Shown here: positions 139 to 18,218 of the stretch, in pieces
Position numbering within the stretch: the first letter of the stretch is position 1
How the letters are laid out: each line of letters begins with the position of its first letter
NCBI GenBank assembly: GCA_035873375.1
Contig: JAYWMQ010000026.1
Coordinates: 1-45,305, forward strand
Direction of reading: 5' to 3'
Source: Nitrospirota bacterium
GTDB lineage: Bacteria > Nitrospirota > Thermodesulfovibrionia > Thermodesulfovibrionales > JdFR-85
DNA length: 45,305 nt
Notes under the pieces: model-generated
Told to the model about the DNA's origin: nothing
Database searches by the model: none
The model's input: only the letters and a program-made list of their open reading frames with translations
Program-made: the position numbers and the translations under genes

Positions 139-198
139 GTTGTAATCGCATTTTTTCTTATCGCTGCTTTTTAATGACCCTTTAGTAGACAGAGAGAC

Positions 199-225
199 AG
201 GGGTCATAGACAGCAGGTCTACACA
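199..225. repeat. Left flanking inverted repeat of the RAYT gene
   Basis: This stretch begins AGGGGTCA and ends GGTCTACACA. The reverse complement of 1203-1220 is exactly these two blocks joined, so the two sites form an imperfect inverted repeat around the RAYT gene. The left copy carries nine extra bases between the blocks. Such repeats are the expected partners of RAYT proteins. Confidence 0.6.
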
Positions 226-227
226 TT

Positions 228-1166: not shown

Positions 1167-1202
1167 TTAGTATTTTTACACAGCCCCTTACATTTTGTCA
1201 AG

Positions 1203-1220
1203 TGTGTAGACCTGACCCCT
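1203..1220. repeat. Right flanking inverted repeat of the RAYT gene
   Basis: TGTGTAGACC followed by TGACCCCT is the reverse complement of the two conserved blocks at 199-225. Only nine bases separate its end from the remnant of a CRISPR repeat at 1230-1238, so the element border and the broken array end nearly coincide. Confidence 0.6.
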
Positions 1221-1229
1221 CTTGACCCC

Positions 1230-1952
1230 CTTTTGAACACGCCTATATCGGCGGCGGATATGATTCAAGTTCTGGGTTTCAGTTGCCTCTTAACAGCGGC
1301 TCTTTTGAACGGGTAGTCCAGGGCGCCCAGGCCATGGGTCACAAAGTTTCAGTTGCCTCTTAACAGCGGCTCTTTTGAACGATGGAGGGCAAACAAACAA
1401 AAATGCGAGGGCGTTTCAGTTGCCTCTTAACAGCGGCTCTTTTGAACTCTTGACAGAACCGACGGTAAGAGATTCTCAAATGCTGGTTTCAGTTGCCTCT
1501 TAACAGCGGCTCTTTTGAACGAAGACAAGTACTCGGTCAATAAGAGGAAGGCGTATGTTTCAGTTGCCTCTTAACAGCGGCTCTTTTGAACACCCGGTAT
1601 GTATGTTTACGGCGCGCCATCCAGCGGCGGTTTCAGTTGCCTCTTAACAGCGGCTCTTTTGAACAAGAAACCAGTCTCCGTATTCGGAGTTGGTTTGTGT
1701 TTCAGTTGCCTCTTAACAGCGGCTCTTTTGAACATGAATACAGGATTTGAGGATATATTGATGTTGCGGTTTCAGTTGCCTCTTAACAGCGGCTCTTTTG
1801 AACCTAAGGGATTTAGTAGATGCCGGCGTTAAGGTAAGTATTAGTTTCAGTTGCCTCTTAACAGCGGCTCTTTTGAACTAGAAGTTATGGTAGAGGATCA
1901 GGGCTATGACCTCAAATGTTTCAGTTGCCTCTTAACAGCGGCTCTTTTGAAC
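1230..1952 (-). CRISPR. CRISPR array 1: 10 full repeats plus a truncated one
   Basis: Ten identical 35-base repeats start at 1276, 1346, 1413, 1486, 1557, 1630, 1699, 1769, 1844 and 1918. Written on the plus strand each begins GTTTCAGTTGCC and ends CGGCTCTTTTGAAC, with the variable core TCTTAACAG (variant C). On the transcribed minus strand the repeat ends ACTGAAAC, the usual 8-nt crRNA tag form for type III. Spacers are 32-40 bases. At 1230-1238 only the last nine bases of a repeat (CTTTTGAAC) survive, followed by a 37-base spacer, so the trailer end has been cut off at the RAYT element. The leader is on the right. Confidence 0.97.
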
Positions 1953-2098
1953 CCTCCCTCTGTAAACCCTTGATACATAAGCCTCTACAGAGCAATTCCC
2001 GCCTGTCTAAAATTTCTCCCTCCATTTCCCTCAAAATTGTACCACAAAACAGCCTTAAAGTTGTCAAAGAACCAGTGTTTGCAACGCCCGCCTGAGAG
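1953..2098 (-). promoter_or_regulatory. Leader of CRISPR array 1
   Basis: This region is nearly identical to the leaders at 6483-6627 and 18219-18363. On the minus strand it holds a sigma70-like promoter: TTGACA (2062-2067) and TACAAT (2036-2041), spaced by 20 bases, one more than in array 2. Transcription would run left into the array. The one-base longer spacing may weaken it. Confidence 0.75.
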
Positions 2099-2153
2099 AA
2101 TTTATAAAAAACACCCTTTTTCTCTTTAATTTCCCCCTGTTACTCACCTGTTG

Positions 2154-2249
2154 TTAAACTCTTACCTTATATTCGTATTTCTCAGGCGGTAATTAAGCGG
2201 TATCTTCCGAATCCGCTTGTTGTATGCTGCCTCTCCATTATACATTATA
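2154..2249 (-). pseudogene. Fragment of a second cas6 (3' end only)
   Basis: The sequence matches the last ~80 bases of the intact cas6 at 6683-7663, including the stop and the codons for the glycine-rich C-terminal tail. It has one extra base near 2189 that shifts the frame. A block of about 60 bases is missing before the TCTCCATTATAC word, after which similarity ends. With the leader on its left and a csx3 fragment on its right it preserves the gene order of the intact copy, so it is the relic of a duplicated csx3-cas6-leader-array unit. Confidence 0.8.
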
Positions 2250-2327
2250 CTGGGATAACTGAGGACAGTAAATGCACTTGTTGCCTTGAATATGACCCCG
2301 GCAATTTAAATGTGCAGGCATTGCGTT

Positions 2328-2375
2328 TTAATAAGGACTGTGGTCAAAGATTACCATATCTCCCGTTACAGTTTT
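2328..2375 (-). pseudogene. Fragment of a second csx3-like gene (C-terminal end)
   Basis: Read on the minus strand, this short piece ends VTGDMVIFDHSPY-stop. The intact csx3-like protein at 7742-7981 ends VTGDILIFDHSPY. No coherent reading frame continues upstream, where the sequence instead runs into the end of cas2. The two differ at several codons, so this is an old and diverged copy rather than a recent duplication. Confidence 0.65.
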
Positions 2376-2432
2376 CATAGTACACAACACGTCCCGGAAG
2401 TTCGTCCCTCACAGCCATATCCCCTTCTCTGG

Positions 2433-2708
2433 TCAGATCATAAAGTAATCGTTATTCCTGTATATAAGCTGCACTCCATCTACTGTTGTTTTCCCGGAGT
2501 CTTTTTTGCATAGATAATAAAATCTGATATGGTCAACGGTTACATCGATCATGGTCTCAAGGGATGCCTTGAGTGCATCAATCTGATCCGGATCAAGGTA
2601 GCATTCGAATATACTCTTCTGAACCCTCATGCCATAGTTTTCCAGTTCAGAAGATACCTGCTCTCTCCTTTTGTCATCTGTGATATCGTATGTTACAACC
2701 ATAAACAT
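2433..2708 (-). CDS. cas2: CRISPR-associated endonuclease Cas2 (second, distal copy)
   Basis: The 91-residue protein opens MFMVVTYDITDDKRR, the ferredoxin-fold Cas2 start with the conserved Asp of the YDI motif. It continues with RVQKSIFECYL and VRFYYLC-type strands (here DHIRFYYLCKK) seen in the Cas2 family. Cas2 forms the central dimer of the Cas1-Cas2 integrase. It starts two bases after the stop of the other cas2 and ends the adaptation operon. Sequence identity between the two Cas2 proteins is low, so they are paralogues or of separate origin, possibly forming a heterodimer. Start could also be Met3. Confidence 0.92.
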   Translation of the reverse strand: MFMVVTYDITDDKRREQVSSELENYGMRVQKSIFECYLDPDQIDALKASLETMIDVTVDHIRFYYLCKKDSGKTTVDGVQLIYRNNDYFMI

Positions 2709-2710
2709 AA

Positions 2711-2992
2711 CTATATTATAAAAAACCGGTCATCATCACTTATACTGCCGGTTCCCCTGTATTCGATCTTTCCGAAACATGCGTTGCAGAGGGGATAAAA
2801 CCTTACACTATCCGCATCCTTATCGATTTTAGAGAGAATTTTATCCCTGAGCATTCTATATTGCACATCCGATATATCACAATCAAACACACTGAACTGT
2901 ACCCTCTTTCCAAATCCTTCCAGGGTTTTCTGAACCTCTCTTCTGCGGCCATCATCACTTATGTCATAACATACCATGTAAAACATTGTCAT
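2711..2992 (-). CDS. cas2: CRISPR-associated endonuclease Cas2 (first, proximal copy)
   Basis: The 93-residue protein begins MTMFYMVCYDISDDGRRREV and continues GKRVQFSVFDCDI and DSVRFYPLC, all hallmarks of Cas2. The catalytic-type Asp lies in CYDIS. Its start overlaps the RT-cas1 stop as ATGA (2989-2992), showing translational coupling. It is followed at two bases by a second cas2. Having two distinct Cas2 subunits beside one RT-Cas1 is the unusual point; which one forms the integrase cannot be told from sequence. Confidence 0.93.
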   Translation of the reverse strand: MTMFYMVCYDISDDGRRREVQKTLEGFGKRVQFSVFDCDISDVQYRMLRDKILSKIDKDADSVRFYPLCNACFGKIEYRGTGSISDDDRFFII

Positions 2993-5067
2993 TTAATCAT
3001 CATCGGTTCATACTTTTCCAGATTCCCTTCAATTACCTGTCGCAGTCCCTGTACCTGAAGGTCGATACACCGCCTGTAATCAACATGATGTCCTGTGGGA
3101 GTATGAGAAATGGAACTATTCATTTTATTTTCAAAGGCCCTTATAAATACCTTTCTTGCATCCCCCTTCAGAAGACAAGGGGAACCACTGCCATGTGGCA
3201 AAAGAAAATCTTTTTTCTTAATACTGCCCCTCAGGATCAGGCTGATCACGACAGCATCCACAACCGGAGCCCTGAACTCCTCCAGTATATCGGATACAAG
3301 AGCCGGATGTCCATTTCTCAACTTGTGCAAAAACCCAATATATGGATGCAGGCCGTGCATTCGGACCATGGCAAAAATGTTATAAAAAAGCAGGGTATAT
3401 CCATAACTCAGCAGACTGTTTACAGGGTCAGGGGGAGGCTGTTTCTGTCTTTTCCTGAAATTCCAGTCGTCTCCCAGCAAGGTCCTCAGCGCTGAAAAAT
3501 ACATTGCAGATGCAGCGCCTTCAACTCCCATAAGTTCATCACGCATGACCACGCTGGATATCTTGTTAAGCATAAGATTCATTTTCTGCACATCGGGCTC
3601 AAAACGCATGTGCCTTCTCTTTCTGCCATACCTCTGGATTATAACCTTTGAATTGTTAATCTTTGCCTTTATAATTGCCTTTCCTGTCTCAAGTGACAGG
3701 GCCTCGTTATCGGCCATCTCAAACTGTCTTTTATGCAAGGCGACATTCGTTATTTTAAAGGAGCTGATCTCGCCGAAATATCTGCCCCTGCTTGAAAGGA
3801 GAATAACCGGGATGTCTTTTTCAAGGCAAAACTTCATCGCCTGGGTCGTCAACTGGACATTCCCGAAAACAAGCACCTGGTCGACCTTTATGGCGGGAAT
3901 TACCTTTATCTCCACCCTGTCCTTCAATATCCTGAACCGTTCATCTTCCTTGGCAAGCACGGAGCCCTGCTCCAAAAGATAAAGGGTCCTCAAAAAGGGG
4001 TTTTTAGAGGCAGACGGCTCTATCTCCGGTCTCTCCTGGAAAAAAGAATCAAGATTGTCTTCTTCAGACTCATTAATCGCGTCTTTAAACGCCTTTGCCA
4101 TTACAGTATCCGGCAAATCCGGTATCCAGGGGGGTATTACTGTTTTTTTCCTTTCAGATATTTCAGATATTATTGGGGGCCTGACAGGTTCTTTTTCAAT
4201 TTCCAGTTTAGCTTCATAGATCGGCCTGAAAATCATTGATCGCAGGAATTCCACTCCAAGATATTTAAAGCCATCATTGAAATGAACAAGCCGTGTTTTA
4301 TCATGATGAAGACTCAGCTTCAATTTTTTTAAGGCATCCTCTGTAAGCTCAAGTGCATCTTCAGCATCCGGCCTCTCCTTGCACAGGATAATAAAGTCAT
4401 CAGCAAACCTGACATGTTTATACCTGGCGTTCATTAATGTTTCATCAAAAACATCAAGATACAGGTTGGACAACAGTGGAGATACCGGAGAACCCTGCGG
4501 AACACCCTTTGTCAGCCTTGTCCTGTGCCCCCTGTATACAACTTCCGCCTTCAACCACATACTTATCAGGTGCAGGACCCTTTCGTCACTGATATATCTA
4601 CTGATTTCTCTTAACAGGATCTCATGGTCAATCTCGTCAAAATACGCGGTTATATCAGCATCCACGACCCACAAATATCCCCGGTTCCTGTAGTCAATAA
4701 TCTTTTGTACGGCCTTCTTTACAGACATTCCCTTCCTGTATGCAAAGCTGCATTCTTCAAACTCCCTGTCCAGGATCGGCGTGAGCACCATCGCAGCGGA
4801 TGTTTGCACCACGCGATCCCTTACCGCCGGGATTGAGAGCCACCTTGTCCCACCGTCATCCTTCGGTATGCCGACCTTCAGCAACGCCTCAGGTTTATAC
4901 TCGCCATCCAGGAGGTTTTTTCTTAGGAACATGAGCGTCTCATTCAGGGATAGAGAGAACTCTTCGATAGTGACATTGTCCACTCCCGGTCCCCCGGCAT
5001 TTTCCTCCACCCTGTCAAAGGCCCTGAGGAGATTGGAATAAGAACATATTTCCTCAAAAAGGCTCAT
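2989..5067 (-). CDS. cas1: Reverse transcriptase-Cas1 fusion protein
   Basis: I start this 692-residue protein at the ATG ending at 5067, which has a GGAGGG site five bases upstream; a longer frame to 5172 would run into the CRISPR repeat. Residues about 10-290 are a group II-intron-like reverse transcriptase: motif A VDADITAYFDEID (Asp138), then GVPQGSPVSPLLSN, then FADD (221-224). A linker of about 100 residues follows. Residues about 385-690 are Cas1, with GVEGAASAMYF (Glu516), GFLHK (His581) and DILEEFR (Glu596) as the metal site. Both enzymes look intact. No Cas6 domain is fused. Together with cas2 it should integrate spacers, including from RNA through cDNA. The array 2 trailer ends 85 bases upstream, so the operon is probably read through from the array. 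Confidence 0.97.
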   Translation of the reverse strand: MSLFEEICSYSNLLRAFDRVEENAGGPGVDNVTIEEFSLSLNETLMFLRKNLLDGEYKPEALLKVGIPKDDGGTRWLSIPAVRDRVVQTSAAMVLTPILDREFEECSFAYRKGMSVKKAVQKIIDYRNRGYLWVVDADITAYFDEIDHEILLREISRYISDERVLHLISMWLKAEVVYRGHRTRLTKGVPQGSPVSPLLSNLYLDVFDETLMNARYKHVRFADDFIILCKERPDAEDALELTEDALKKLKLSLHHDKTRLVHFNDGFKYLGVEFLRSMIFRPIYEAKLEIEKEPVRPPIISEISERKKTVIPPWIPDLPDTVMAKAFKDAINESEEDNLDSFFQERPEIEPSASKNPFLRTLYLLEQGSVLAKEDERFRILKDRVEIKVIPAIKVDQVLVFGNVQLTTQAMKFCLEKDIPVILLSSRGRYFGEISSFKITNVALHKRQFEMADNEALSLETGKAIIKAKINNSKVIIQRYGRKRRHMRFEPDVQKMNLMLNKISSVVMRDELMGVEGAASAMYFSALRTLLGDDWNFRKRQKQPPPDPVNSLLSYGYTLLFYNIFAMVRMHGLHPYIGFLHKLRNGHPALVSDILEEFRAPVVDAVVISLILRGSIKKKDFLLPHGSGSPCLLKGDARKVFIRAFENKMNSSISHTPTGHHVDYRRCIDLQVQGLRQVIEGNLEKYEPMMIK

Positions 5068-5151
5068 GTCACCCTCCACTAAAAAGGATTTCCCCAAAAA
5101 GTTGCCTCCTGTCTCTGTTGCCAGCTTGCCAGCCTGATAGCTTGTTAGCTT

Positions 5152-6482
5152 AGATTTGTTGCCTTTTATCAACGGCTCTTTTGAACGAAAGGGAGGCGTG
5201 ATGGGAAAGCTTGAGGTGTTGGAGTTTCAGTTGCCTTTTATCAACGGCTCTTTTGAACACAATTCAACCCTCGTCTATACTGTCCCAAATAAATCGGAGT
5301 TTCAGTTGCCTTTTATCAACGGCTCTTTTGAACATTAATAAAGTTTTATTCCGCAAGGATGAAGTTAGGTAAGTGTTTCAGTTGCCTTTTATCAACGGCT
5401 CTTTTGAACTAAAAGTGATCGGGACGCGGTAAGGAAAGCGATGGTGGGTTTCAGTTGCCTTTTATCAACGGCTCTTTTGAACTTCAGGCCGGGATTGCAG
5501 CACATGCAGTGTTGCAGTTTCAGTTGCCTTTTATCAACGGCTCTTTTGAACTTGTCATGAGTGACGAGAGGCAGGTAGCCGTAGCGTTTCAGTTGCCTCT
5601 TAACAACGGCTCTTTTGAACTCTGTGTGGAAAGAGAAGGCTTTCCATACAGAAAGTTTCAGTTGCCTCTTAACAACGGCTCTTTTGAACAAGATGACAAG
5701 AGACGAAAAGGATAAACTAATGTTTCAGTTTCAGTTGCCTCTTAACAACGGCTCTTTTGAACACCGCGTCAAGCCGAACGTAAGAAGGTATGTCGGAATA
5801 AAGTTTCAGTTGCCTCTTAACAACGGCTCTTTTGAACACAAAGGGTTGAGTTATTAGTCGGCAAACATGAGCATACGGGTTTCAGTTGCCTCTTAACAAC
5901 GGCTCTTTTGAACAATTGATGTTGTCGTGACAATAGCAACATCTTATTAGTTTCAGTTGCCTCTTAACAACGGCTCTTTTGAACGTTTTTGCAGTTTTGT
6001 TTATCTTGGCTTTTATTATCTGTTTCAGTTGCCTCTTAACAACGGCTCTTTTGAACGGCGAAGGACCGTGAGGTCCGGGTACAGAACCGAAGTTTCAGTT
6101 GCCTCTTAACAACGGCTCTTTTGAACTCGGGATCGGCATGGCAAAAAGCCAGCCGTTTATAGTTTCAGTTGCCTCTTAACAACGGCTCTTTTGAACGCTC
6201 TCGCGGTCTTAGGGTTCGTGGCTTTATGTTTGTTTCAGTTGCCTCTTAACAACGGCTCTTTTGAACCAAAATTGTGGGTCCGACCGAGCTCGGGGCCATC
6301 CTGTTTCAGTTGCCTCTTAACAACGGCTCTTTTGAACGATGAGATAATGGGTCTGATCAGCATATTCAGGCCAAGTTTCAGTTGCCTCTTAACAACGGCT
6401 CTTTTGAACAACCGGCGTTGGTCTCGACCATGGAGACCGTGGGGAAGGTTTCAGTTGCCTCTTAACAACGGCTCTTTTGAAC
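5152..6482 (-). CRISPR. CRISPR array 2: 19 repeats, 18 spacers, two repeat variants
   Basis: Repeats of 35 bases start at 5152 (degenerate 5' end), 5224, 5299, 5375, 5448, 5517, 5586, 5655, 5728, 5803, 5879, 5950, 6022, 6092, 6162, 6232, 6303, 6375 and 6448. The first six, the oldest and distal from the leader, have the core CCTTTTATCAACGG (variant A). The next thirteen have CCTCTTAACAACGG (variant B). Two substitutions change together between 5517 and 5586 with no intermediate. Spacers are 34-41 bases and many hold inverted repeats. The leader lies right of the array. Its trailer repeat abuts the region upstream of RT-cas1. Confidence 0.98.
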
Positions 6483-6627
6483 CCTCCCTCTGTAAACCCT
6501 TGATACATAAGGCTCTACAGGGCAATTCCCGCCTGTCTAAAATTTCTCTCTCCATTTCCCTTAAAATTGTACCAAAAACAGCCTTAAAGTTGTCAAAGAA
6601 CCAGTGTTTGCAACGCCCGCCTGAGAG
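6483..6627 (-). promoter_or_regulatory. Leader and promoter of CRISPR array 2
   Basis: On the minus strand TTGACA (6591-6596) and TACAAT (6566-6571) are separated by 19 bases, a reasonable promoter reading into the array. About 145 bases are conserved with the leaders of arrays 1 and 3, ending at the word CGCCCGCCTGAGAG. The remaining bases to 6682 lead to the cas6 stop and are shared only with the array 1 copy. Confidence 0.8.
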
Positions 6628-6682
6628 AATTTATAAAAAACAGGCATTTTCTCTTTAAATTTCCCCAGTTACTCGCCTATTA

Positions 6683-7663
6683 TTAAACTTTTACCTTATA
6701 TTCGTATTTCTCAGGCGGCATTAAGCGGTATCTTCCGAATCCGCTTGTTGTATGCTGCCCTACTCCGAGCACCTCTCCCAGCTTCAAAAAAGGATAAAAC
6801 CGGCCTATCTCTCCATTATACCTTATTATCCCTAATTGTCCACCGATTTTCAGGGATTTATGCTGTCTTGAGGAAAATCTGTTAAAATCCCGCCATTCCG
6901 TATATGCTTTTGTTTCAATCTTACCGGCCAAGGTAAAGAGGTCCTGTTTTTCGGGCTCGATCCTCTCCTTGTCAAAGCCCTTGCCATTACAGTAAAGGTT
7001 GTTAAGGTTTATAATCCTCTTTATTAAAAGTCTGAAAAAGGTCTCAAAAGAGAGATTACAATAATTAAGCCCACTTATCCCCTCTCTTATTTTTAGCGGG
7101 GTAAGTAACTCAATACTGCATTGGTCAACAGTCATGGCCTCTTCCTCAAAAAACGCAGAAGCATCAATCGAGTCCTCTGCCACCACGGATTTCACACGAA
7201 ACCTCCCCCTCCTGCTGCCTATACCCGCTCTGCCCATCTCTTCAACAGTCATTATAAACTTATCCACATGCCCTGCTGCCTCACCTATAAGCACCATATC
7301 GAGTTGCAGCCTCTCACCTGTTTCATATCCCTTTTTGCCGTCAAGCCTGGGAAGCATCACGTATGGAAGCGGCCTGTCCGTAAAGAAATACCTGTAATAA
7401 AGACAGCCTGCACACATATCGCATTCATCACAAGCAGTCTTGTCCCACCTGCAAAGACATGCCAGATTCCTCAATGCCTCCCCAAAACCACCCCGCCACC
7501 GATCACCCTTGACCTCATCAGGGCCAAGATGGATCTTTTCAAGTGGAAACAGGGTAAATTCAACCTTTAAAGCCCTGAACCCTGAAAGGGTCTGCTTAAG
7601 ATAACTTGTTCCCGGCTGTGTTGTTGATTGTTGGTTCATTGGTTGTGATGTTTCCGTATTCAT
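6683..7663 (-). CDS. cas6: CRISPR repeat endoribonuclease Cas6
   Basis: Cas6 cuts the precursor transcript within each repeat to give crRNAs. The 326-residue protein ends with FLKLGEVLGVGQHTTSGFGRYRL, the glycine-rich loop that defines Cas6 C-terminal domains. The N-terminal RAMP half has a cluster of six cysteines at 69-87 (CLCRW, CDECDMCAGC), likely metal-binding and not usual in textbook Cas6. The first ~25 residues are rich in Thr, Gln and Ser and are encoded by repetitive 'word' DNA; no good ribosome site precedes 7663, so the true start may be further in. It lies 200 bases before array 2, and part of it is duplicated at 2154-2249. Confidence 0.92.
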   Translation of the reverse strand: MNTETSQPMNQQSTTQPGTSYLKQTLSGFRALKVEFTLFPLEKIHLGPDEVKGDRWRGGFGEALRNLACLCRWDKTACDECDMCAGCLYYRYFFTDRPLPYVMLPRLDGKKGYETGERLQLDMVLIGEAAGHVDKFIMTVEEMGRAGIGSRRGRFRVKSVVAEDSIDASAFFEEEAMTVDQCSIELLTPLKIREGISGLNYCNLSFETFFRLLIKRIINLNNLYCNGKGFDKERIEPEKQDLFTLAGKIETKAYTEWRDFNRFSSRQHKSLKIGGQLGIIRYNGEIGRFYPFLKLGEVLGVGQHTTSGFGRYRLMPPEKYEYKVKV

Positions 7664-7741
7664 TTCAATTCAAACACTCTCATCTACGAGACGGCTCCGT
7701 AAATGTCTCCTGTTGTTGGAAGACACTACAGTTCTTTTAAA

Positions 7742-7981: not shown

Positions 7982-7993
7982 CGTTCCCTCGGG

Positions 7994-8536
7994 CTATTTG
8001 ATCAAGTGACACCAGAACTCATAATTACCCTTTTGATTTTTATGATAGAGCTTGACAGGCCTCCAGTTATCAAACATAGCACCAATTAATGTTCCTGCCT
8101 GGATTGGCCCAGCAATAAAAAGATGTATCTCTGTTGCGTCCTGTGCTTCAAGCTGCCTTCTTTTCACTCTTAACGTATTGATAAAATCTTCTATAGTTTC
8201 AGGACTAAGTCCATTCATATTGAGTTCTTCAACAGGCATTTTCTCCCATTCACCGCCTTTGCTTCTTAAAAACCTCTCAACGTCTCCCTTTATGGAGTCA
8301 GTTGTGGGCAGTAAAGAAACGGCAAGAGCGTATGGATTTATCGTCTTTATGTCTTTGTGATAGTCAACGAGTTCCTTGAAATTCTCTATTTTGGGGGATG
8401 TACCGGCAATCTCCTGCAACCGTTTATTTTGCCGCCGGAGTTTTATCCATATGAGGACAGAAAACAATGCAGCAATCAGTCCGGTTACAACGCTGATTTT
8501 GTCCAGCGCATCAAATATAGGTTCAATAATCTCCAT
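7994..8536 (-). CDS. Membrane-anchored SAVED-like (cyclic nucleotide sensor) protein
   Basis: 180 residues. Residues about 14-33 are one hydrophobic membrane segment followed by a basic stretch (KLRRQNKR), which places the rest in the cytoplasm. The soluble part has a Rossmann-like pattern: YALAVSLLP near 90, and near 140-178 EIHLFIAGP, then GAMFDNWRPVKLYH and YEFW. This resembles the second half of SAVED domains ('ihlF.agP.a.a..lG...n.w.pv.lY'), which sense cyclic oligonucleotides. It is shorter than a full two-lobed SAVED, so two copies may have to pair. It lies between a four-helix membrane protein and csx3 in the type III operon. My reading is that it senses a Cas10-made messenger at the membrane; this is inference. 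Confidence 0.65.
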   Translation of the reverse strand: MEIIEPIFDALDKISVVTGLIAALFSVLIWIKLRRQNKRLQEIAGTSPKIENFKELVDYHKDIKTINPYALAVSLLPTTDSIKGDVERFLRSKGGEWEKMPVEELNMNGLSPETIEDFINTLRVKRRQLEAQDATEIHLFIAGPIQAGTLIGAMFDNWRPVKLYHKNQKGNYEFWCHLIK

Positions 8537-8574
8537 CAGTTAGTTCCTGAGAGGAGATTTTATTTTCATCAATA

Positions 8575-9576
8575 TCATAGAGGCTCTGTGATGGTCTCCT
8601 TCTCCCAGAAAACCTGGATGAAGATGCCTATGAAAAGAGCGGCTGAACTGAAGAAAAAAGTATTCTTAAGAACAGGCACGATGTTGTTTAAGCTAAACTC
8701 TCCTACCAAGAGACTATAATACTGGGCAGCAAAGGTCGGATCAACCGATATACGTCCCACTACAGCACAGGATGTTAATGAAAGCAAAAAACTCATAACA
8801 TATCCCTTAACCCCAACGTTTAATGCCCTCTTTGAGGCTTTTTTCTTGTCAGAAATTATGTTGTAACATTCATATGTTAAATATAAAACAGTAATTGCAA
8901 ACAACCCTATGTTTAAAGAAAAAACAGAGAGAAGACTCCATAAACCTAAAGTGTCAGGGAAAAGTTTATGTGGAAAGTTCCACCCCTCTTGTCCTGTCAT
9001 CAAAGCTAAGAGACCTATGATTATCGCTACCAGCAGACGCGGGTAAAATAATTTGAGTTTATCCCAGCAATCAAAAGGTTTTAATATTTGTCGTGCCATT
9101 TTACCATTGTATCTTCTTAAATACCAGTCTGCTATTACCTTGAGATATATCTTTTGTGGTTGGTCTAAAAAAAAAGAGTCTATGTTGCAACTTTGCAGGA
9201 CTGAAGTCATCTTATTTTTAGATCCTCTCTTAACAATACAGTTTTTAACTTCTTCTTCTCTGTCAATCCCCCTGAGAACAAGATAGTGTTCAACATCAGG
9301 ATCTCTTCTTGTATTCAGACATAAACTGAGCCACACAAATCTTGTGACCTCGTTTACTTCTTTAGAAAAGTTTCTATTTAAAATCCACTTGATATGGGAT
9401 AATTCATATTTGAGTATGTGAACCTGATCAGTGAAAAGCTTTATTTCACGTTCAATAATTTCTAATTTTTCTTTGTTCTGCTTATTATTATCAATTTCTT
9501 TAAAAACATTTTCAAGTCTTCCTGCTCTACTTAATTCAAGAGCCTTCCTGATATTATCTGTTTCTTTATCACTCAT
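8575..9576 (-). CDS. Unknown coiled-coil protein with four membrane segments; candidate membrane effector
   Basis: 333 residues, no family that I recognise. Residues 1-75 are strongly charged helix with coiled-coil character (EKLEIIEREIKLFTDQV). Residues 75-175 look globular. Hydrophobic segments follow at about 180-195, 211-236, 257-275 and 305-323. It is not CorA: no GxN loop is visible. Its ATG overlaps the stop of the CARF gene (9573-9576), and the SAVED-like gene starts 38 bases after it, so it belongs to the CRISPR operon. By analogy with other type III membrane effectors it could form a pore or channel gated by a cyclic-oligoadenylate sensor. The sequence itself shows only topology and context. 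Confidence 0.75.
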   Translation of the reverse strand: MSDKETDNIRKALELSRAGRLENVFKEIDNNKQNKEKLEIIEREIKLFTDQVHILKYELSHIKWILNRNFSKEVNEVTRFVWLSLCLNTRRDPDVEHYLVLRGIDREEEVKNCIVKRGSKNKMTSVLQSCNIDSFFLDQPQKIYLKVIADWYLRRYNGKMARQILKPFDCWDKLKLFYPRLLVAIIIGLLALMTGQEGWNFPHKLFPDTLGLWSLLSVFSLNIGLFAITVLYLTYECYNIISDKKKASKRALNVGVKGYVMSFLLSLTSCAVVGRISVDPTFAAQYYSLLVGEFSLNNIVPVLKNTFFFSSAALFIGIFIQVFWEKETITEPL

Positions 9577-10304
9577 AATGCACCACCAATAAATGCTTCA
9601 CTTGCATTGCCATTTTCCTCAATAATTATTTTTCTCAATTTCTGATAATCAATAAGGAACAATCCATCACTCTCTTCATGCATATAAAAAATATACATAT
9701 TTTTCTGAATGGAAAGAACAGTCGTCAGTGGAATTACTCCTTTCAGTCCACCAGTAACGTTGAAATAAGCCATCCGATGAGGAAAATTACCTCTTACGTC
9801 CTTTATAGTTTCTTCAAGATTTGACAAGGCATTAATAAATTGTGTTTCATTGCCTCCTGGACTCAATCCATCAATCCTAACAATTCCTACCCCGCCGCCA
9901 TTATTCATAATGAAATAGTTTTTCATACCTGCAATCTGCTGATCATCAGTTGTTGTCAAAGGAAAAGAAGCAGTATCGTCAAAATATCTCCTAACAATTG
10001 CCTGTGCGTTAATATGAGCACAGACCTCACTTTTTTTATCTTCTGAATGAAGTAGTACAATCCAGTCACAGTTATCCAATGGATGTCTCTCGTTGAAGGC
10101 AATAAGACTTGCCATTTCAGCAGTAAGGTTAAATCTGTCACTTAAAGAAGCAGCTATCATGGCATTAGATATGTCATTCTCAATATCCGGACTACTTGTT
10201 TCTACTTCAACAGCGTTCTTTAGCCTATTTGTATCAGCATTATTAAAACTTTTACTTGCATCAAAAACCGATGTGCCAACTGTCATCAGGATAAGCTTTT
10301 CCAT
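9573..10304 (-). CDS. Standalone CARF-domain protein (APE2256/Crn1-like)
   Basis: 243 residues. The protein begins with strand MEKLILMTVGTSVFD and carries FNVTGGLKGVIPLTTVL (about 181-197), the two ligand-binding signatures of CARF domains of the APE2256/Csm6 type. No HEPN RxxxxH motif and no other effector domain can be seen. Ser12 and Lys188 fall where Crn1-type ring nucleases have their active Ser and Lys, so it may cleave as well as bind cyclic tetra-adenylate. Alternatively it is a sensor subunit for the membrane protein whose gene overlaps it by four bases. It follows the TIGR03986 RAMP gene by 12 bases. Confidence 0.85.
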   Translation of the reverse strand: MEKLILMTVGTSVFDASKSFNNADTNRLKNAVEVETSSPDIENDISNAMIAASLSDRFNLTAEMASLIAFNERHPLDNCDWIVLLHSEDKKSEVCAHINAQAIVRRYFDDTASFPLTTTDDQQIAGMKNYFIMNNGGGVGIVRIDGLSPGGNETQFINALSNLEETIKDVRGNFPHRMAYFNVTGGLKGVIPLTTVLSIQKNMYIFYMHEESDGLFLIDYQKLRKIIIEENGNASEAFIGGAL

Positions 10305-10316
10305 AATGCCTCCTGT

Positions 10317-11612
10317 TTAAAGGTTGCAGATATACATCTTTGAATTATCGCTAAACTCACCAACGATTACTTCCAGTGATTGTCCCCTTTTTAGCTCTAT
10401 GCCTTTTGATTCATATTTATCTTTGCTTAAATATCCCTTCTTGTTATCCGGTAAATTAAGGACAGTCCCGAATTCTTTTACTTCAACAACTGTGGCCTTT
10501 GCTTTTCCCTGTAACTTCTCAGTTTTCTTAGTTGGTGGTGTTCGGGGTCTGTCAAGTATGCCATCAGATGGGAGAGGCACATTTTTGTTGGCTGAGAACC
10601 ACTTCTGGCCTGGATATTTAATTTGTAACGGACCTGGACTACCATTATTATTCCGACTTTTATCTAACCTCAACAGGTCTTTTAATTTTAAATTTCGTGA
10701 CAGGGCTAATGCCTTGCCGTTCTCATATGATTTTGTTAAACCTTGAATATGCTTTTCTAACGCCTCTCCTTCAAACACCTTAGCACTGCCCAGACTTGAA
10801 TAACGATCCTTCGAATTCAGTTCTTTTAACCTTATAATTCTCATTTCACAGCTTCCGAGACCGAGCGGCTTTCCCATACCGAGTTTGTGTCCAAGATCAT
10901 TTTCAAGTTCAATGCTTTGAAGCAGGAGTCCGAGCTCTTTATCGGTCAGGGAGTTATACTGAATCTCAAACTCGAACTCCGAGGCTTCAGGCACAACCTC
11001 AATCCTTATTTCACCAGTCGTAGGTAGATTCGCTTTTTTATGATGATAATAGAATTTTCTGCCTTTGATCTTGTTATTGTCAAAATAAAATATCCTGTGT
11101 CTAAGTGGATTGGGACTGCTAAGAGAGTGTTCATTTTTAAGATAAACCTCTCTTGTCATTTTTTTTGTATCATTTGTATCAATAGAAACAGCATCCATTA
11201 CCTTTATCTTACCGGCAAAGCTAAATGTCTCTTCTTCATCGTTAATCTTATAACTTTTTACAGTTGTACCAAATATCCTGCAGGCAACACATAATCCATG
11301 ATCTTTATCACATTTTTCAATAAGAATATTGTCCAATGAACCGCTTAAATCACCTGATATCATAGATATACACGAATTGGATATGGCCTCTGCTGTTGCC
11401 CTGAGGAGTCCTTTCAGGCTGGAACCGTATATGCCCGTCCTGCCACCAACCTTCATAAATTTTCTATTGCCATCTCCTACAAGTGCGTCGGTCAGGAATG
11501 TGAGCTTTACGGTAAGCACCCCGCTCTTGCCACCATATCTGACAGCTTCCTCTCTTGCCACATTTTCTTCATCAATTCCTGCAAAATTATAGGGGTTTAT
11601 AAACATCTTCAT
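10317..11612 (-). CDS. TIGR03986-type RAMP protein with C-terminal S1-like domain
   Basis: 431 residues. It opens MKMFINPYNFAG, typical for TIGR03986 proteins of type III-D loci. The RAMP fold is visible in IYGSSLKGLLRATAE, CVACRIFGTT (Cys plus FG motif shared by all RAMPs here) and LGHKLGMGKPLGLGSCEM. No Asp aligns clearly with the Cas7 target-RNA cutting residue. Residues about 365-431 (AKATVVEVKEFGTVL..., KGYLSKDKY, RGQSLEVIVGEF) look like an S1/OB RNA-binding domain. It probably joins or caps the crRNA backbone. Its ATGA overlaps the csx19 stop, and the GGAGG site lies inside csx19. Confidence 0.8.
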   Translation of the reverse strand: MKMFINPYNFAGIDEENVAREEAVRYGGKSGVLTVKLTFLTDALVGDGNRKFMKVGGRTGIYGSSLKGLLRATAEAISNSCISMISGDLSGSLDNILIEKCDKDHGLCVACRIFGTTVKSYKINDEEETFSFAGKIKVMDAVSIDTNDTKKMTREVYLKNEHSLSSPNPLRHRIFYFDNNKIKGRKFYYHHKKANLPTTGEIRIEVVPEASEFEFEIQYNSLTDKELGLLLQSIELENDLGHKLGMGKPLGLGSCEMRIIRLKELNSKDRYSSLGSAKVFEGEALEKHIQGLTKSYENGKALALSRNLKLKDLLRLDKSRNNNGSPGPLQIKYPGQKWFSANKNVPLPSDGILDRPRTPPTKKTEKLQGKAKATVVEVKEFGTVLNLPDNKKGYLSKDKYESKGIELKRGQSLEVIVGEFSDNSKMYICNL

Positions 11613-12106
11613 TCCTCCTTTAACCCTACATAACGGTGGACAGTACCTTTATCAGAGGATAGGGAATACTCCTTTACAATCAGTTTCAGCCTGCCTCTTA
11701 TTTTAGTGGCATTGACGGGGTAGTTTAAGATTCTTGGAATTCGTTGTTCGTACCAGTCATCCGTTGTATTACCACTCTTTTCGATGTTTTCTCCCCAGAG
11801 ATATATCTCTCTTTCACGAACAGGGTTTATTTCTTCAGGGTTAAGTTTTTCAGCAACTCCACCATTCTCGGAAATTATAACTACATGGAACCCATTTCTC
11901 CGTTTTAGCCATCTGAGTTCAACATTTTCTCCGAATAGCCGTCCCCTGTCCCAGTCAAACAGATTGCCAATACTGTTAATTTCTGACTTTTTGATAAATC
12001 GTATATCATCAGGTTTTTCCAGTATGGCAAACTTATAGTCAATATCTGATGCAAGTTTTGAGACTTCCGACTCGTTACAACCTTTTTTATTTCCTATCAG
12101 TGGCAT
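11609..12106 (-). CDS. csx19: Type III-D associated protein Csx19
   Basis: 165 residues. SIGNLFDWDRGRLFGENVELRW and the following FHVVII strand fit the Csx19 family (TIGR03984), a marker of type III-D loci next to csx10 and Cas7 genes. Its exact role is not established; it is thought to be part of, or bound to, the effector complex. The gene starts one base after the stop of the preceding cas7 and overlaps the next gene by four bases, so it is co-translated with both. Confidence 0.75.
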   Translation of the reverse strand: MPLIGNKKGCNESEVSKLASDIDYKFAILEKPDDIRFIKKSEINSIGNLFDWDRGRLFGENVELRWLKRRNGFHVVIISENGGVAEKLNPEEINPVREREIYLWGENIEKSGNTTDDWYEQRIPRILNYPVNATKIRGRLKLIVKEYSLSSDKGTVHRYVGLKEE

Positions 12107-12107
12107 C

Positions 12108-13082
12108 TTAACTCTCCAGGGTTAAAGCTGATTCAAGTGCTTTATTCCACTCAGGTGCAACATCCTTTATAAACTGAGGTACGTCCGTTATCTCATAATC
12201 CTTACGTATGGAAAGGTTTTCATCTGCAAGGGGATTCAGGTATTCCTTTTTACCAAGATTGCCGGGAATAAAACAGTATTTATCGATATCAATCGGTGAA
12301 GACAAAGCGCCTACATCCTTTATCTCACCTGCTGGATTGATATTACCCAAATAGGTTAATTTAATGGATATTCTCTCTCCGAGTGTTTTTCCATACCCCT
12401 TTGTAGTACCAAACCCAACTGATATATACCCATCCATAAGGTCCTGAAATACATATGCCAGAAGACCAAGCTGCCAGAGTTCAAAGTTTCTGATTCTGAC
12501 TTTTACTTCTGCTTTGCAGTTTTCAAGTAACTGGAATCTGAAATTAGCGCCACTTTTCACAGCACCAGTAACCCGGTCTATACCAATGCCGTCCCTTATG
12601 ATTACTTTCTTTTCAGTTATCTCCGCATCTCCTATCTCAATTCTGCTTCCTGATGCAGTTGAGCCGAAGAGTTTGCAGACAAGGCATGAATCTTTATAAG
12701 GTGTAAGTGGTTTTGACTTTTCAAGTCTATTTGAACAACTGAGTTTTTTATCAAAGGGATCGCAGCAAATAGTATAATTGTCTTTACCATCAAGAAAGGT
12801 TTTTGCGATTTTCTCGGTATGACTCCTGAAAACACCTCGCAGGGAGGTTCCAGGCATATAATGATTTAAAGAGTTATAATTTTTAGTTTTGATTGCGTTA
12901 CCAAACACATCGTCATTATCTGTACATATAAAAACAGCATCAGGATATTCTTTCTTCCTGCTTTCCAGATTCATTTCCTTGACAAAAGCATTCTTCTCAT
13001 ATCTTCCATCCTTGATTAACCATGGACTGTCTGACTTGAGACTGATGGTCATGTTACATTCATTTATCATCTTCTTGAGCAT
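12108..13082 (-). CDS. cas7: Cas7-like RAMP (Csm3 family), third in the complex operon
   Basis: 324 residues. The Cas7 signature YMPGTSLRGVFRSHTEKI (about 79-96) is followed by CLVCKLFGSTASGSRIEIGDA and DGIGIDR, then GFGTTKGYGKTLG near 230-245. Asp48 (in PDAVFIC) lies where Csm3 has its target-cleaving Asp, though with more residues before the GTSLRG motif than usual. Cys residues near 105-136 may bind zinc. It forms part of the crRNA-binding backbone. The gene follows the next cas7 after one base, so all Cas7 genes are translated as a chain. The C-terminal ~70 residues have no match that I recognise. Confidence 0.88.
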   Translation of the reverse strand: MLKKMINECNMTISLKSDSPWLIKDGRYEKNAFVKEMNLESRKKEYPDAVFICTDNDDVFGNAIKTKNYNSLNHYMPGTSLRGVFRSHTEKIAKTFLDGKDNYTICCDPFDKKLSCSNRLEKSKPLTPYKDSCLVCKLFGSTASGSRIEIGDAEITEKKVIIRDGIGIDRVTGAVKSGANFRFQLLENCKAEVKVRIRNFELWQLGLLAYVFQDLMDGYISVGFGTTKGYGKTLGERISIKLTYLGNINPAGEIKDVGALSSPIDIDKYCFIPGNLGKKEYLNPLADENLSIRKDYEITDVPQFIKDVAPEWNKALESALTLES

Positions 13083-13083
13083 C

Positions 13084-13896
13084 TCATACCTCCAGGAATT
13101 TATTGAGATGACTTGTTATGAGAGAAATCTTTCCGTTAGTTGAATATCCTGATTCCAAGTATGAGTTAATGTCAGTAAAATAGCGTGATACTGTGGGTGA
13201 ATTCAGCATGCATCTTCCAAGACCTGCAGCAGCATTCCCCCCGACCCATAACTCTCCTCTTATTAATTCATTCAATCCGATAGACAAAACAGCCATGTCA
13301 GCCTCGTCAACATTCTCCACAATCATCTCGAAATGAAATTGTGCATCTTTTTCAGCTACTTCGTAATCAAATTTTGCACCGTCAACCGCTGTTTCGGTAT
13401 CACGGTCAATACCGACTCCATCCCTCTTCACAACTGAAGGAGTGGTTCCTGAAACAGGATAAAGGTCGGTAAATCTAACCTTTGATATATTAAAAGTGCT
13501 TCCAAAGACCTTGCAGACACCACAAAGTTTGCTGTCAAGTTCAGCAATGATTCCATCCTCATCTATTTGGTTAGCTTCTATTTTCTTTAAAAGATTGTCC
13601 TTCTCCTTCTTGTTCCCGGCAAGACAGATTTTCGAAGTGGAATCTTCAAATAAAATACAGGATGTTAATTTTGTGTTGCCCAGTGAGGCAAGTATTCTTT
13701 CGACAGTGCTTCTAAATGCCCCTCGCAAAGATGAACCGGGGATATAGACAGTACCATTCATGGTTCGTATAAATGGACTGTCTGTTTCAGGATTAGCCTT
13801 TCCAGAAGAAATACTCATTGGAGTAAGCAACTCAAGTTCACCAGTTATGATATATCTGTTATCCAGCCTGTCCATCCTTATTGACTTTTCCGACAT
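13084..13896 (-). CDS. cas7: Cas7-like RAMP (Csm3/Csx7 family), second in the complex operon
   Basis: 270 residues. ISSGKANPETDSPFIR (29-44) followed by VYIPGSSLRGAFRSTVERI is the classical Csm3/Csx7 pattern; Asp39 matches the target-RNA cutting Asp of Csm3. CGVCKVFGSTFN, DGVGIDRDT and GGNAAAGLGR complete the family motifs. A GGAGGTG site precedes the ATG at 13896. The gene overlaps the small-subunit gene by 19 bases. It should be one of the backbone subunits that cut bound target RNA every six bases. Confidence 0.92.
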   Translation of the reverse strand: MSEKSIRMDRLDNRYIITGELELLTPMSISSGKANPETDSPFIRTMNGTVYIPGSSLRGAFRSTVERILASLGNTKLTSCILFEDSTSKICLAGNKKEKDNLLKKIEANQIDEDGIIAELDSKLCGVCKVFGSTFNISKVRFTDLYPVSGTTPSVVKRDGVGIDRDTETAVDGAKFDYEVAEKDAQFHFEMIVENVDEADMAVLSIGLNELIRGELWVGGNAAAGLGRCMLNSPTVSRYFTDINSYLESGYSTNGKISLITSHLNKFLEV

Positions 13897-14447
13897 ATCA
13901 ATTCACCTCCTTCAAGGTAGAAACTCAGTTTTTTCGCTTTGCCGTTAATATCCAATTTTGCATTCTCTATCCTGTAAATTAGAAGTATTGCAGAAAAAAG
14001 AGCCTTGAGGTACTTAAGTTTTGCCAGTTCAAAGGTTTCATTATCCGTGTCTTCTTTCTCTTTGTCTTTCAGACCTTCTCTCAAAAAAGACGTATTTGAG
14101 TTGATTGCAAATGTATAATCTCCAAAAAATTTCTCTCTATCAACAGATTCAATCTTCTCTATGATTATATCTGCAAGCATTTTCCCTTCACACTCAAGCG
14201 CCCACCCAGTCTTCTTATCCTGATTTTTATCTCTCTGTTTTGTTAAGAATTTTTTCACCTCAGATAATAGGGCATTTAAATCTCCAGCATCCTGTATCAA
14301 TGATCCGAGGGTATTCATCTGCGTTTGAGAAGGAATATCGCTCTTCTTCCTCAAATATGTTTGGTAGAAATCAAAGGCATTCTTTGATATCTTCTCCTGA
14401 TATACCTGAATGTTTTTCTCTACAATCATGGAAAGTGCGCCAATCAT
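13878..14447 (-). CDS. Probable small subunit (Cas11-like) of the type III-D complex
   Basis: 189 residues, nearly all helical, with charged surfaces (KFLTKQRDKNQDKK, LKDKEKEDTDNE) and no RAMP motif. Size, helical content and position between csx10 and cas7 fit the small subunit (Csm2/Cas11) that lines the target strand. I find no motif that proves it. It overlaps csx10 by four bases and the downstream cas7 by 19, so it is certainly a part of the complex operon. Confidence 0.55.
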   Translation of the reverse strand: MIGALSMIVEKNIQVYQEKISKNAFDFYQTYLRKKSDIPSQTQMNTLGSLIQDAGDLNALLSEVKKFLTKQRDKNQDKKTGWALECEGKMLADIIIEKIESVDREKFFGDYTFAINSNTSFLREGLKDKEKEDTDNETFELAKLKYLKALFSAILLIYRIENAKLDINGKAKKLSFYLEGGELICRKSQ

Positions 14448-15571
14448 TCTTTCATCTCCTCATAAAATTCAAGATGGAACTTATTACATATACTTACCTG
14501 TCCAAATCCCTCAGTGACTCTCTCTCCGATAAACTCCGGAATTTTTTGCAACTCTGATGCAATCTGTGTTTTAACCTCATCAGATAAGGAGTTGCTGCTC
14601 TTGAAAACAAATACAGAGCCTTTCTCTATCGTAACAACATCCTCCTTGGGAAGTGAAACATTAGGTGCGCTGTTCCAGCCTGATATCTTTCTCGTGCCTG
14701 AAATCCAGAAATCAAGTTTAAAGTTATTTAAAATGTTGCTGTCAACTGAAAGATATTCAAGTAATGTATCCAATGTTAATTTACTGCAATACCTGAGATA
14801 TTTATCAAAAATAATCATGTCTGAAAGCAGGGTAATCGAAAAATAGGTGTGTTTGTCTCCAATGAGACAGTTAAATCTATCAAACCTCTCGTTAAGGTTG
14901 TCTGTTGAGGACTTGTTCTCTACAAAGACCTTGCAATGGCCCTGTCCCCTGCTTCGTGCCGTTCCAATCCTCATTTCCCTGCTATTAAGAAATTCCAGGA
15001 CTTTGTCCTTTAAGCCATTTTCAACATGTAGCCTTCCTGCGAAAAAACTTCCCTCATTGATTGCCTCCATGGAGAACAGTTCACCATGTGCGGCAGTTTC
15101 TCTCGTGGGGTTGATGGCTGTCCTGGCTATAAGCCTTTTAGGTACTTCTATCTTTTTAAAATAGCCTTTCTCCTTTTTATAAAATCCCCTAAAATTATCC
15201 ATAGGTGCCTTACATTGAGAACAGTACTCAAGACCTTCCATATCATTTTTCAGCCATGGTATTACCATATCCTTTACTCCATGTGCATCCGGTACAAACC
15301 CTGAACTATATTTACAGGAAAGGGCAGAGAGCGGCAACAGTTCGCTCTCATTATAGTAGAGATTTCCAAATATACACTTCCCTGAAAGGAATATCTCCTT
15401 AAACAGGTTGTCCTGCATTGGATCTGAAATACCCTTTTCCTTAATATAAGCCGATGCAAGGACGCCTCTTACAACCGTTGCCGGTATATAGTCAACTGTA
15501 TATATCTCATTAATGGATGTATAACTGCATGAAATTGTAACAGGTGACAGGACCTCAAGTCTTAATTTCAT
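14444..15571 (-). CDS. csx10: Csx10, Cas5-type RAMP of type III-D
   Basis: 375 residues. The start MKLRLEVLSPVTIS and the end PEFIGERVTEGFGQVSI are typical for Csx10 (TIGR02674), the type III-D counterpart of Cas5/Csm4 that holds the 5' tag of the crRNA against Cas10. IPATVVRGVLASAYI is the RAMP helix, and CSQCKAP with an earlier Cys pair suggests a metal site. IGTARSRGQGHCKV is a second glycine-rich strand pair. The gene overlaps the upstream cas7 by 17 bases and the downstream small-subunit gene by four. Confidence 0.88.
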   Translation of the reverse strand: MKLRLEVLSPVTISCSYTSINEIYTVDYIPATVVRGVLASAYIKEKGISDPMQDNLFKEIFLSGKCIFGNLYYNESELLPLSALSCKYSSGFVPDAHGVKDMVIPWLKNDMEGLEYCSQCKAPMDNFRGFYKKEKGYFKKIEVPKRLIARTAINPTRETAAHGELFSMEAINEGSFFAGRLHVENGLKDKVLEFLNSREMRIGTARSRGQGHCKVFVENKSSTDNLNERFDRFNCLIGDKHTYFSITLLSDMIIFDKYLRYCSKLTLDTLLEYLSVDSNILNNFKLDFWISGTRKISGWNSAPNVSLPKEDVVTIEKGSVFVFKSSNSLSDEVKTQIASELQKIPEFIGERVTEGFGQVSICNKFHLEFYEEMKE

Positions 15572-16178
15572 TAATCACCTCCACCTCTATACCATCATCT
15601 GTGAGCCTTCCAACACCTCTTCCTTTATTTCCGCCCAGGTGGGTTATCAATCTAATCGCATTAATGAGTTCCTTCATATCGTTATCCGATATATCCCCTA
15701 TGATCCTTGATTGAAATTCAAGCCCTTCAAGTGGCAGTTCGGTAATATGTAGTCCCCCCTTAAGAGCAGTCAGCCTTTTTCTGGTTATCGGTGTGCTGGC
15801 AAATCCTGTTGTGTCAAGATTAAACGGAAAACCTTCCTCTTTTCTTATAAGTGCACGGAAGAACTTCTTCTGCTTATCTGTATGCTTAGAGTCGGTAAAA
15901 ACAAGAGGACTTGCTACAAATGGAGAGCCAAAAAGCCTGCACATGATACATAGGTGTGACCTGTCCTTACATATTTCGTCACTGCAGAAACTTTTTCCTG
16001 TAGAACGTAATAATTTTTGCATATGCGCCCTTATCCGCCCCTTTATGCTTGACCCGGGAATATATAAAAAACCACTTCCGTCCCGAAGCATTGTATCATC
16101 AAAGATTCCAGCATATCCGAACCCGCTTTTTATGATATAGGGTGTTTTGAACCTGAAGTTGAGCCTTATTTCTTTCAT
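15555..16178 (-). CDS. cas7: Cas7-like RAMP (Csm3 family), first in the complex operon
   Basis: 207 residues, a compact Cas7. FDDTMLRDGSGFLYIPGSS (26-44) then IKGRIRAHMQKL is the Csm3 core, with Asp27 aligned to the cutting Asp. CIMCRLFGSPFVASPLVFTDS and GGNKGRGVGR are the other shared motifs. It overlaps cas10 by four bases and csx10 by 17. With the other two Cas7 proteins it makes a three-paralogue backbone, as expected for type III-D. Confidence 0.9.
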   Translation of the reverse strand: MKEIRLNFRFKTPYIIKSGFGYAGIFDDTMLRDGSGFLYIPGSSIKGRIRAHMQKLLRSTGKSFCSDEICKDRSHLCIMCRLFGSPFVASPLVFTDSKHTDKQKKFFRALIRKEEGFPFNLDTTGFASTPITRKRLTALKGGLHITELPLEGLEFQSRIIGDISDNDMKELINAIRLITHLGGNKGRGVGRLTDDGIEVEVINEIKT

Positions 16179-18105: not shown

Positions 18106-18218
18106 GTTTCAGTTGCCTTTTATCAACGGCTCTTTTGAACTGGCTTTTGCCTTTGTGCTATCCACCTCCACGGGCAGGGGGATGTTTCAGTTGCCTTTTA
18201 TCAACGGCTCTTTTGAAC
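18106..18218 (-). CRISPR. CRISPR mini-array 3: two repeats, one spacer
   Basis: Two perfect variant-A repeats (core CCTTTTATCAACGG) at 18106-18140 and 18184-18218 flank one 43-base spacer. The leader is on the right, as in arrays 1 and 2. The repeat is the same variant as the oldest part of array 2. The array sits upstream of cas10, so the effector operon is bracketed by arrays with one leader family. Confidence 0.93.

What the first reader, a model, noticed from the sequence alone, without database searches (positions are those of the whole stretch)
1239..6447. Spacers are strikingly rich in hairpins
Read by eye on the plus strand, about 13 of 29 spacers contain inverted repeats. Examples: 5621-5652, TCTGTGTGGAAAG against CTTTCCATACAGA (13 pairs, one G-U); 1668-1696, AAACCA..CTCCG tatt CGGAG.TGGTTT (11 pairs); 5496-5516, TGCAGCAC against GTGTTGCA (8); 6134-6155, CGGC.TGGC aaaaa GCCAGCCG (8, one bulge); 6277-6297, GGTCCGA against TCGGGGCC; 6350-6372, GGTCTGA against TCAGGCC; 5918-5943, GATGTTG against CAACATC; 6420-6438, GGTCTC against GAGACC; 6063-6076, GGACC GTGA GGTCC with a GNRA-type loop; weaker ones at 1244-1262, 1893-1913, 5337-5350 and 5552-5567. 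Random 35-mers should not do this so often. The mismatches are G-T on the plus strand, i.e. G-U in an RNA of the target sense, since crRNA is minus-strand; I did not search equally for A-C pairs, so this bias needs testing. Because the integrase is an RT-Cas1, a direct idea is that structured RNAs (terminators, element ends, hairpin-primed cDNA) are preferred substrates, or that the system targets transcript hairpins.
Basis: partly seen in the sequence, partly recalled or inferred. Interest (0 to 1): 0.85.

Follow-up and report, generated by a model that had tools for sequence, protein, structure and literature searches.

The report
Foldable spacers in RT-CRISPR arrays
The immune-memory sequences stored beside this bacterium's reverse-transcriptase CRISPR system fold into hairpins more often than chance; other reverse-transcriptase CRISPR arrays show the same and ordinary DNA-targeting arrays do not, which suggests that such systems capture structured RNA or DNA, perhaps even pieces of RNA viruses.

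Summary
The 29 window spacers fold more stably than dinucleotide shuffles (target sense Z=-5.5, crRNA sense Z=-3.8), although only 4 are individually significant in the target sense. It replicates: the array of an 83%-identical RT-Cas1 in another Nitrospirota genome gives Z=-4.0, and RT-Cas1 arrays on cyanobacterial plasmids show it too. Over 24 genomes, 13.5% of RT-array spacers are structured at p<0.05, against 6.6% in type I/other arrays.

The RT is not required. An RT-free type III-A array (G107, 101 spacers) has the excess, and other RT-free type III arrays show a weaker one, as expected if type III adaptation favours secondary structure (literature).

Two features point to RNA in RT arrays. 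The target-sense strand folds better than the crRNA strand (-0.24 kcal/spacer, CI -0.38 to -0.10), which is absent in RT-free and type I arrays. The fold-score distribution of the RT-Cas1 clade matches random pieces of ssRNA phages (KS p=0.62-0.67) and not phage T7 (p=0.0009).

Terminators, snap-back cDNA and a G-T excess in stems are not supported. No protospacer was found. Best reading: structure-biased type III adaptation; an ssRNA-phage source is not excluded.

The parts
1239..1952 (-). CRISPR array 1: 10 spacers (1239-1275 behind a truncated repeat, then 1311-1917), 35-nt repeats, crRNA strand is minus
   Evidence: Repeats by the repeat finder and pattern; leader-side flank on the right and repeat ending ACTGAAAC on the minus strand (sequence)
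5152..6482 (-). CRISPR array 2: 18 spacers; carries most of the hairpin signal (array Z=-5.6 target sense)
18106..18218 (-). Orphan two-repeat array with one 43-nt spacer
1953..2231 (-). Leader-like flank of array 1, repeated at 6483-6759
   Evidence: Direct repeats D4, D5, D7, 93-100% identical; leader role inferred
6483..6759 (-). Leader-like flank of array 2
2989..5172 (-). RT-Cas1 fusion (727 aa), RT domain about 36-312 with FADD motif, Cas1 domain about 394-727
   Evidence: PADLOC Cas1_IIIb 2e-114, RT 2e-92; NCBIfam; sequence with VRFADDFIIL; PDB match to Cas6-RT-Cas1 7kft
2711..2992 (-). cas2 copy 1
2433..2708 (-). cas2 copy 2
6683..7663 (-). cas6
7994..17677 (-). Type III-D effector and signalling operon: SAVED, membrane-like ORF, CARF, Csm3-like Cas7 genes, Csx19, Csx10/Cas5, Cas10
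5621..5654 (+). Strongest hairpin spacer: 13-bp stem, -19.1 kcal, p=0.0005, open frame SVWKEKAFHTE in the target sense
1665..1698 (+). Hairpin spacer, -15.6 kcal, p=0.0005
5914..5949 (+). Hairpin spacer, -9.9 kcal, p=0.0095
6127..6161 (+). Hairpin spacer, -13.1 kcal, p=0.0085

Best explanation
The hairpins are a footprint of which nucleic acid this adaptation module captures. The spacers belong to a type III-D system whose RT-Cas1 and two Cas2 proteins probably capture RNA as well as DNA (inferred from the family). Type III adaptation favours self-folding segments: in RT-free systems ssDNA hairpins, and here, through the RT, folded RNA segments of the transcript sense. Shown here: the excess of foldable spacers, its replication in other RT arrays, its presence in at least one RT-free type III array, its weakness in type I arrays, the target-sense strand asymmetry in RT arrays, and the coding-sense orientation. 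Inferred: that the bias acts at capture (folded RNA survives RNases or is the better substrate for 3' tailing, cDNA synthesis and integration) and not at later retention of spacers.
For: Window Z=-5.5; RT-Cas1 relative L035 Z=-4.0 after removing a duplicate spacer; RT arrays on plasmids of Microcystis -4.4, Pseudanabaena -3.2 and -3.7, Anabaena -3.4, Nostoc -4.9. Bootstrap by genome: RT arrays mean z -0.41 [-0.50,-0.31], RT-free type III -0.31 [-0.42,-0.16], type I/other -0.11 [-0.16,-0.05]. RT-free III-A array of G107 Z=-7.1/-8.5. Literature: in S. thermophilus and S. epidermidis type III-A adaptation prefers hairpin-forming regions (review PMC9048733); RNase III products of structured RNA are proposed RT-Cas1 substrates (PMC11014452). 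Target-sense coding bias: 89% of window spacers score higher in target sense.
Against: Without G107, RT-free type III arrays show only a mild excess (-0.21; Thermus -0.19+-0.14), and RT versus RT-free type III does not differ significantly at genome level (p=0.12). Hairpin ends are not aligned with spacer ends (5-6 nt unpaired on both sides, centre offset 0.03+-0.56), as in random windows of RNA phages, which speaks against excision of hairpins as units. Arrays of the same genome on contig C41 are only marginal (Z=-1.5, p=0.07). RT arrays are mildly heterogeneous (p=0.04).
Confidence: 0.5

Rival explanations
1. Source effect: most spacers of this RT-Cas1 clade come from single-stranded RNA phages (Leviviricetes-like), whose coding genomes are densely folded, and random sampling through the RT carries that structure into the array.
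For: Random 37-mers of MS2 (z -0.68, 18.6% structured), PP7 (-0.53, 17.1%) and 80 environmental leviviruses (-0.47, 16.6%; 1% level 6.9%) match the clade's spacers (-0.60, 16.1%, 6.9%); KS p=0.66, 0.67 and 0.62, against 0.0009 for T7. The whole distribution shifts (median -0.41), unlike RT-free type III without G107 (median +0.05). Target-sense asymmetry -0.24 kcal in RT arrays, -0.11 and -0.25 in MS2 and PP7. Structured spacers look coding. RT-linked spacers have unknown sources (PMC5513706), and RT-containing type III systems target riboviruses (stated in PMC10847044).
Against: No sequence or peptide match to 82 leviviral sequences beyond that of type I spacers; no hit in IMG/VR, which does hold leviviruses, for six window spacers tried as patterns. 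The environmental leviviral asymmetry itself is only -0.10+-0.07. The RT-free G107 array fits the leviviral distribution too. It would require most RT-array spacers to be of RNA-phage origin.
Confidence: 0.25
2. Hot-spot effect: spacers come from DNA-phage or plasmid hairpin loci such as terminators, attenuators and origins.
For: Several structured spacers of the RT-free G107 array share one hairpin motif (AGAGGGTTTCRATACCCTCTCT) and look less coding. Precedent in S. thermophilus type III-A (PMC9048733).
Against: In the window clade structured spacers are as coding as unstructured ones (coding z 0.56+-0.09 vs 0.45+-0.07), structured RT-array spacers lack 3' U-runs, and the shift is distribution-wide.
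Confidence: 0.12
3. Snap-back or hairpin-primed cDNA: the RT itself creates the inverted repeat by self-priming.
For: RT-Cas1 of Marinomonas makes snap-back cDNA in vitro (PMC11014452).
Against: Stems carry G-T and A-C mismatches at equal rate, whereas de novo copies would be perfect; structured spacers of the window clade read as plausible coding sequence throughout.
Confidence: 0.03
4. Chance, or general properties of natural DNA.
For: Most single spacers are not significant; the window was picked because of the pattern.
Against: Aggregate Z=-5.5; own and T7 DNA windows have z -0.04 to -0.14; replicated in independent genomes.
Confidence: 0.03

Closest known systems
Secondary-structure preference of type III-A adaptation in Streptococcus thermophilus and Staphylococcus epidermidis (Zhang et al. 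and Aviram et al., through review PMC9048733)
   Same: Type III Cas1-Cas2 captures foldable regions more than type II does; spacers enriched on the transcript sense
   Different: Those systems lack RT, the evidence is from fresh acquisition in the laboratory, and the proposed substrate is ssDNA; here natural arrays with RT-Cas1 show it with a target-sense asymmetry
RT-Cas1 type III systems (Marinomonas MMB-1, Arthrospira, Vibrio vulnificus)
   Same: RT-Cas1 fusion, Cas2, type III effector, spacers of unknown source (PMC5513706)
   Different: I found no report of hairpin enrichment of natural RT-linked spacers in the searches made; here a type III-D operon with two cas2 genes and a separate cas6
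RT-containing type III systems reported to target riboviruses (cited in PMC10847044)
   Same: Would explain structured, coding, target-sense spacers
   Different: No RNA-virus protospacer found here

Membership tests
RT-associated type III-D CRISPR-Cas | RT fused to Cas1 with an intact RT catalytic motif | tested here: met
   RT and Cas1 domains; FADD in the translation
RT-associated type III-D CRISPR-Cas | Type III-D effector genes (Cas10, Csx10, Csx19, several Cas7) | tested here: met
RT-associated type III-D CRISPR-Cas | Capture of spacers from RNA | not testable with these tools
   Only indirect: target-sense coding bias and strand asymmetry
Structure-biased type III adaptation | Spacers more foldable than composition predicts | tested here: met
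Structure-biased type III adaptation | Bias shared by type III arrays and weak or absent in type I arrays | tested here: inconclusive
   RT type III versus type I clear (p=0.003); RT-free type III versus type I not significant at genome level (p=0.13)
Structure-biased type III adaptation | Protospacers lie in hairpin-forming regions | tested here: inconclusive
   No protospacer found
Memory of ssRNA phages | Spacer folding statistics equal those of ssRNA phage genomes | tested here: met
   KS p=0.62-0.67 for the clade
Memory of ssRNA phages | Spacers match RNA-phage sequence | tested here: not met
   Hits no better than type I controls; IMG/VR patterns negative
Terminator-derived spacers | Hairpin followed by a U-run, non-coding | tested here: not met

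The most novel reading that the evidence does not exclude
The RT-Cas1 arrays of this clade, and perhaps cyanobacterial RT arrays, are mostly a genetic memory of single-stranded RNA phages. The folding signature of spacers alone would then reveal RNA-phage origin even where no RNA-phage genome is known, which would account for the long-standing lack of identifiable sources for RT-linked spacers.
Probability: 0.22. Interest if true: 0.87.

Novelty: new variant of a known kind. Interest (0 to 1): 0.6.

Why it matters
The source of RT-linked CRISPR spacers has been called enigmatic (PMC5513706). A composition-controlled folding signal, stronger in the target sense and equal in size to that of ssRNA phage genomes, makes two hypotheses separable without a sequence match: structure-preferring adaptation, or RNA-phage memory. 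Either result would say what these modules capture in nature, and the test is cheap enough to run on every RT array in the databases.

Tried and rejected
Protospacer searches, all negative: window spacers against phages and plasmids; RT arrays L121 and L130 and the RT-free array L156 against phages; seven IMG/VR pattern scans, five of them tolerant of synonymous changes; 176 genomes of the order, where only a 22-nt match in G244 was found, without the 3' arm of the hairpin and taken as chance. Rfam over 1-8000: nothing. RdRp motifs in spacer translations: only chance-like GDD hits. G-T versus A-C counts: no bias. Trend of structure along the array: none significant. Enrichment of ribosome-binding sites plus start codons in own spacers looked strong (9 of 50 against 0), but the loose pattern hits 7-9% of sense-strand control windows, so it is weak and was dropped.
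Full report
What is there. The window lies in a Nitrospirota MAG (own genome G000, contig C26; closest relatives). Two CRISPR arrays (1239-1952 and 5152-6482) flank an adaptation module of RT-Cas1 and two cas2 genes; cas6 and a type III-D effector and signalling operon follow. The flanks to the right of both arrays are 93-100% identical copies, and the minus-strand repeat ends in ACTGAAAC, so crRNA is taken as the minus strand and the plus strand of each spacer is the target sense. RT-Cas1 has the FADD motif. More arrays with near-identical repeats lie on contig C41.

Check of the observation. The 29 spacers fold to -217.0 kcal in the target sense against -159.8+-10.4 for 2000 dinucleotide shuffles per spacer (Z=-5.5); in the crRNA sense Z=-3.8; with DNA parameters -4.9 and -4.1. 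Only four are individually below 0.05 in the target sense (1665, 5621, 5914, 6127); the remaining listed hairpins are ordinary for their composition. Without the two strongest the excess remains (Z=-2.85, p=0.004).

Is it linked to RT? I wrote an array finder and folded about 1,800 spacers from more than 70 genomes or plasmids. The array of the 83%-identical RT-Cas1 (L035) gives Z=-4.0 after removal of a duplicate spacer. RT-Cas1 arrays on cyanobacterial plasmids give Z of -4.4 (Microcystis, 52 spacers), -3.2 and -3.7 (Pseudanabaena), -3.4 (Anabaena) and -4.9 (Nostoc). None of the first set of RT-free arrays, mostly type I, was below -2.7 in the target sense. Bootstrapping by genome, mean target-sense z is -0.41 [-0.50,-0.31] for RT arrays (556 spacers, 24 genomes), -0.31 [-0.42,-0.16] for RT-free type III (305, 13), -0.21 for the latter without G107, and -0.11 [-0.16,-0.05] for type I/other (952, 36). 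RT against type I is significant at genome level (p=0.003); RT against RT-free type III is not (p=0.12). The RT-free III-A array of G107 (L156, 101 spacers, no RT in the locus) is as hairpin-rich as any RT array, while Thermus III-A arrays are mild (-0.19+-0.14). So RT is not necessary. Assignment of arrays to type III or type I rests on neighbouring cas genes and repeat families and may be wrong for a few loci.

RNA or DNA? RT arrays fold better in the target sense than in the crRNA sense by 0.24 kcal per spacer (CI 0.10-0.38), in Nitrospirota and plasmid sets separately; RT-free type III (+0.06) and type I (0.005) arrays do not. A direct G-T versus A-C count is near 1:1, so this rests on energies and is modest. 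Some array orientations, mainly on cyanobacterial plasmids, are uncertain. Spacers of the window are strongly coding in the target sense (89%), which is expected of type III memory in general (PMC8482600).

What do the hairpins look like? Structured spacers of the clade are as coding as the others; structured RT-array spacers have no 3' U-run, and hairpins are not centred. This argues against terminators and against excision of hairpins as units. Random 37-nt windows of MS2, PP7 and 80 environmental leviviruses have the same fold-score distribution as the clade's spacers (KS p=0.66, 0.67, 0.62), while T7 does not and host DNA has mean z near zero. The median is shifted (-0.41), not only the tail. 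The spacers therefore look like random pieces of a folded coding RNA. Yet no spacer matched any leviviral sequence better than controls, and no protospacer was found anywhere. The G107 array also fits the leviviral distribution, which weakens the inference.

Known background. Type III-A adaptation without RT prefers secondary structures in S. thermophilus and S. epidermidis (review PMC9048733). RT-Cas1 can make snap-back cDNA in vitro, and RNase III products of structured RNA are discussed as substrates (PMC11014452). The source of RT-linked spacers is called enigmatic, with no RNA-phage match (PMC5513706); RT-containing type III systems are said to target some riboviruses (PMC10847044). My literature searches found no report of hairpin enrichment in natural RT-linked spacers, but the library is partial.

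Verdict. A real, replicated signature, best explained by structure-biased type III adaptation that in RT systems can act on RNA; an ssRNA-phage source remains possible and would be of high interest.

Noticed in passing
window 228-1238: A REP-associated tyrosine transposase (RAYT) with a DnaA-like C-terminal match abuts array 1; the sequence to its right joins a truncated CRISPR repeat at about 1231-1238, suggesting that the element disrupted the distal repeat.
   Followed up: partly
window 2433-2992: Two adjacent cas2 genes, both clear Cas2 family members, next to RT-Cas1.
   Followed up: no
window 13878-14447 and 8575-9576: Two operon ORFs with weak or no family hits: 189 aa inside the III-D effector operon (possible small subunit), and 333 aa with a weak membrane-protein match between the SAVED and CARF genes.
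   Followed up: no
L156 (G107:C13) 693-8162: RT-free III-A array of 101 spacers with very strong hairpin excess; several spacers carry one related hairpin, AGAGGGTTTCRATACCCTCTCT, as if one regulatory repeat of a virus had been sampled many times.
   Followed up: partly
L035 9087 and 9304: Identical spacer twice in the array of the close RT-Cas1 relative; its target sense encodes DPTPDPTPDPDP.
   Followed up: no
window 18106-18218: Orphan array of two repeats and one 43-nt spacer just upstream of cas10, with the older repeat variant.
   Followed up: no
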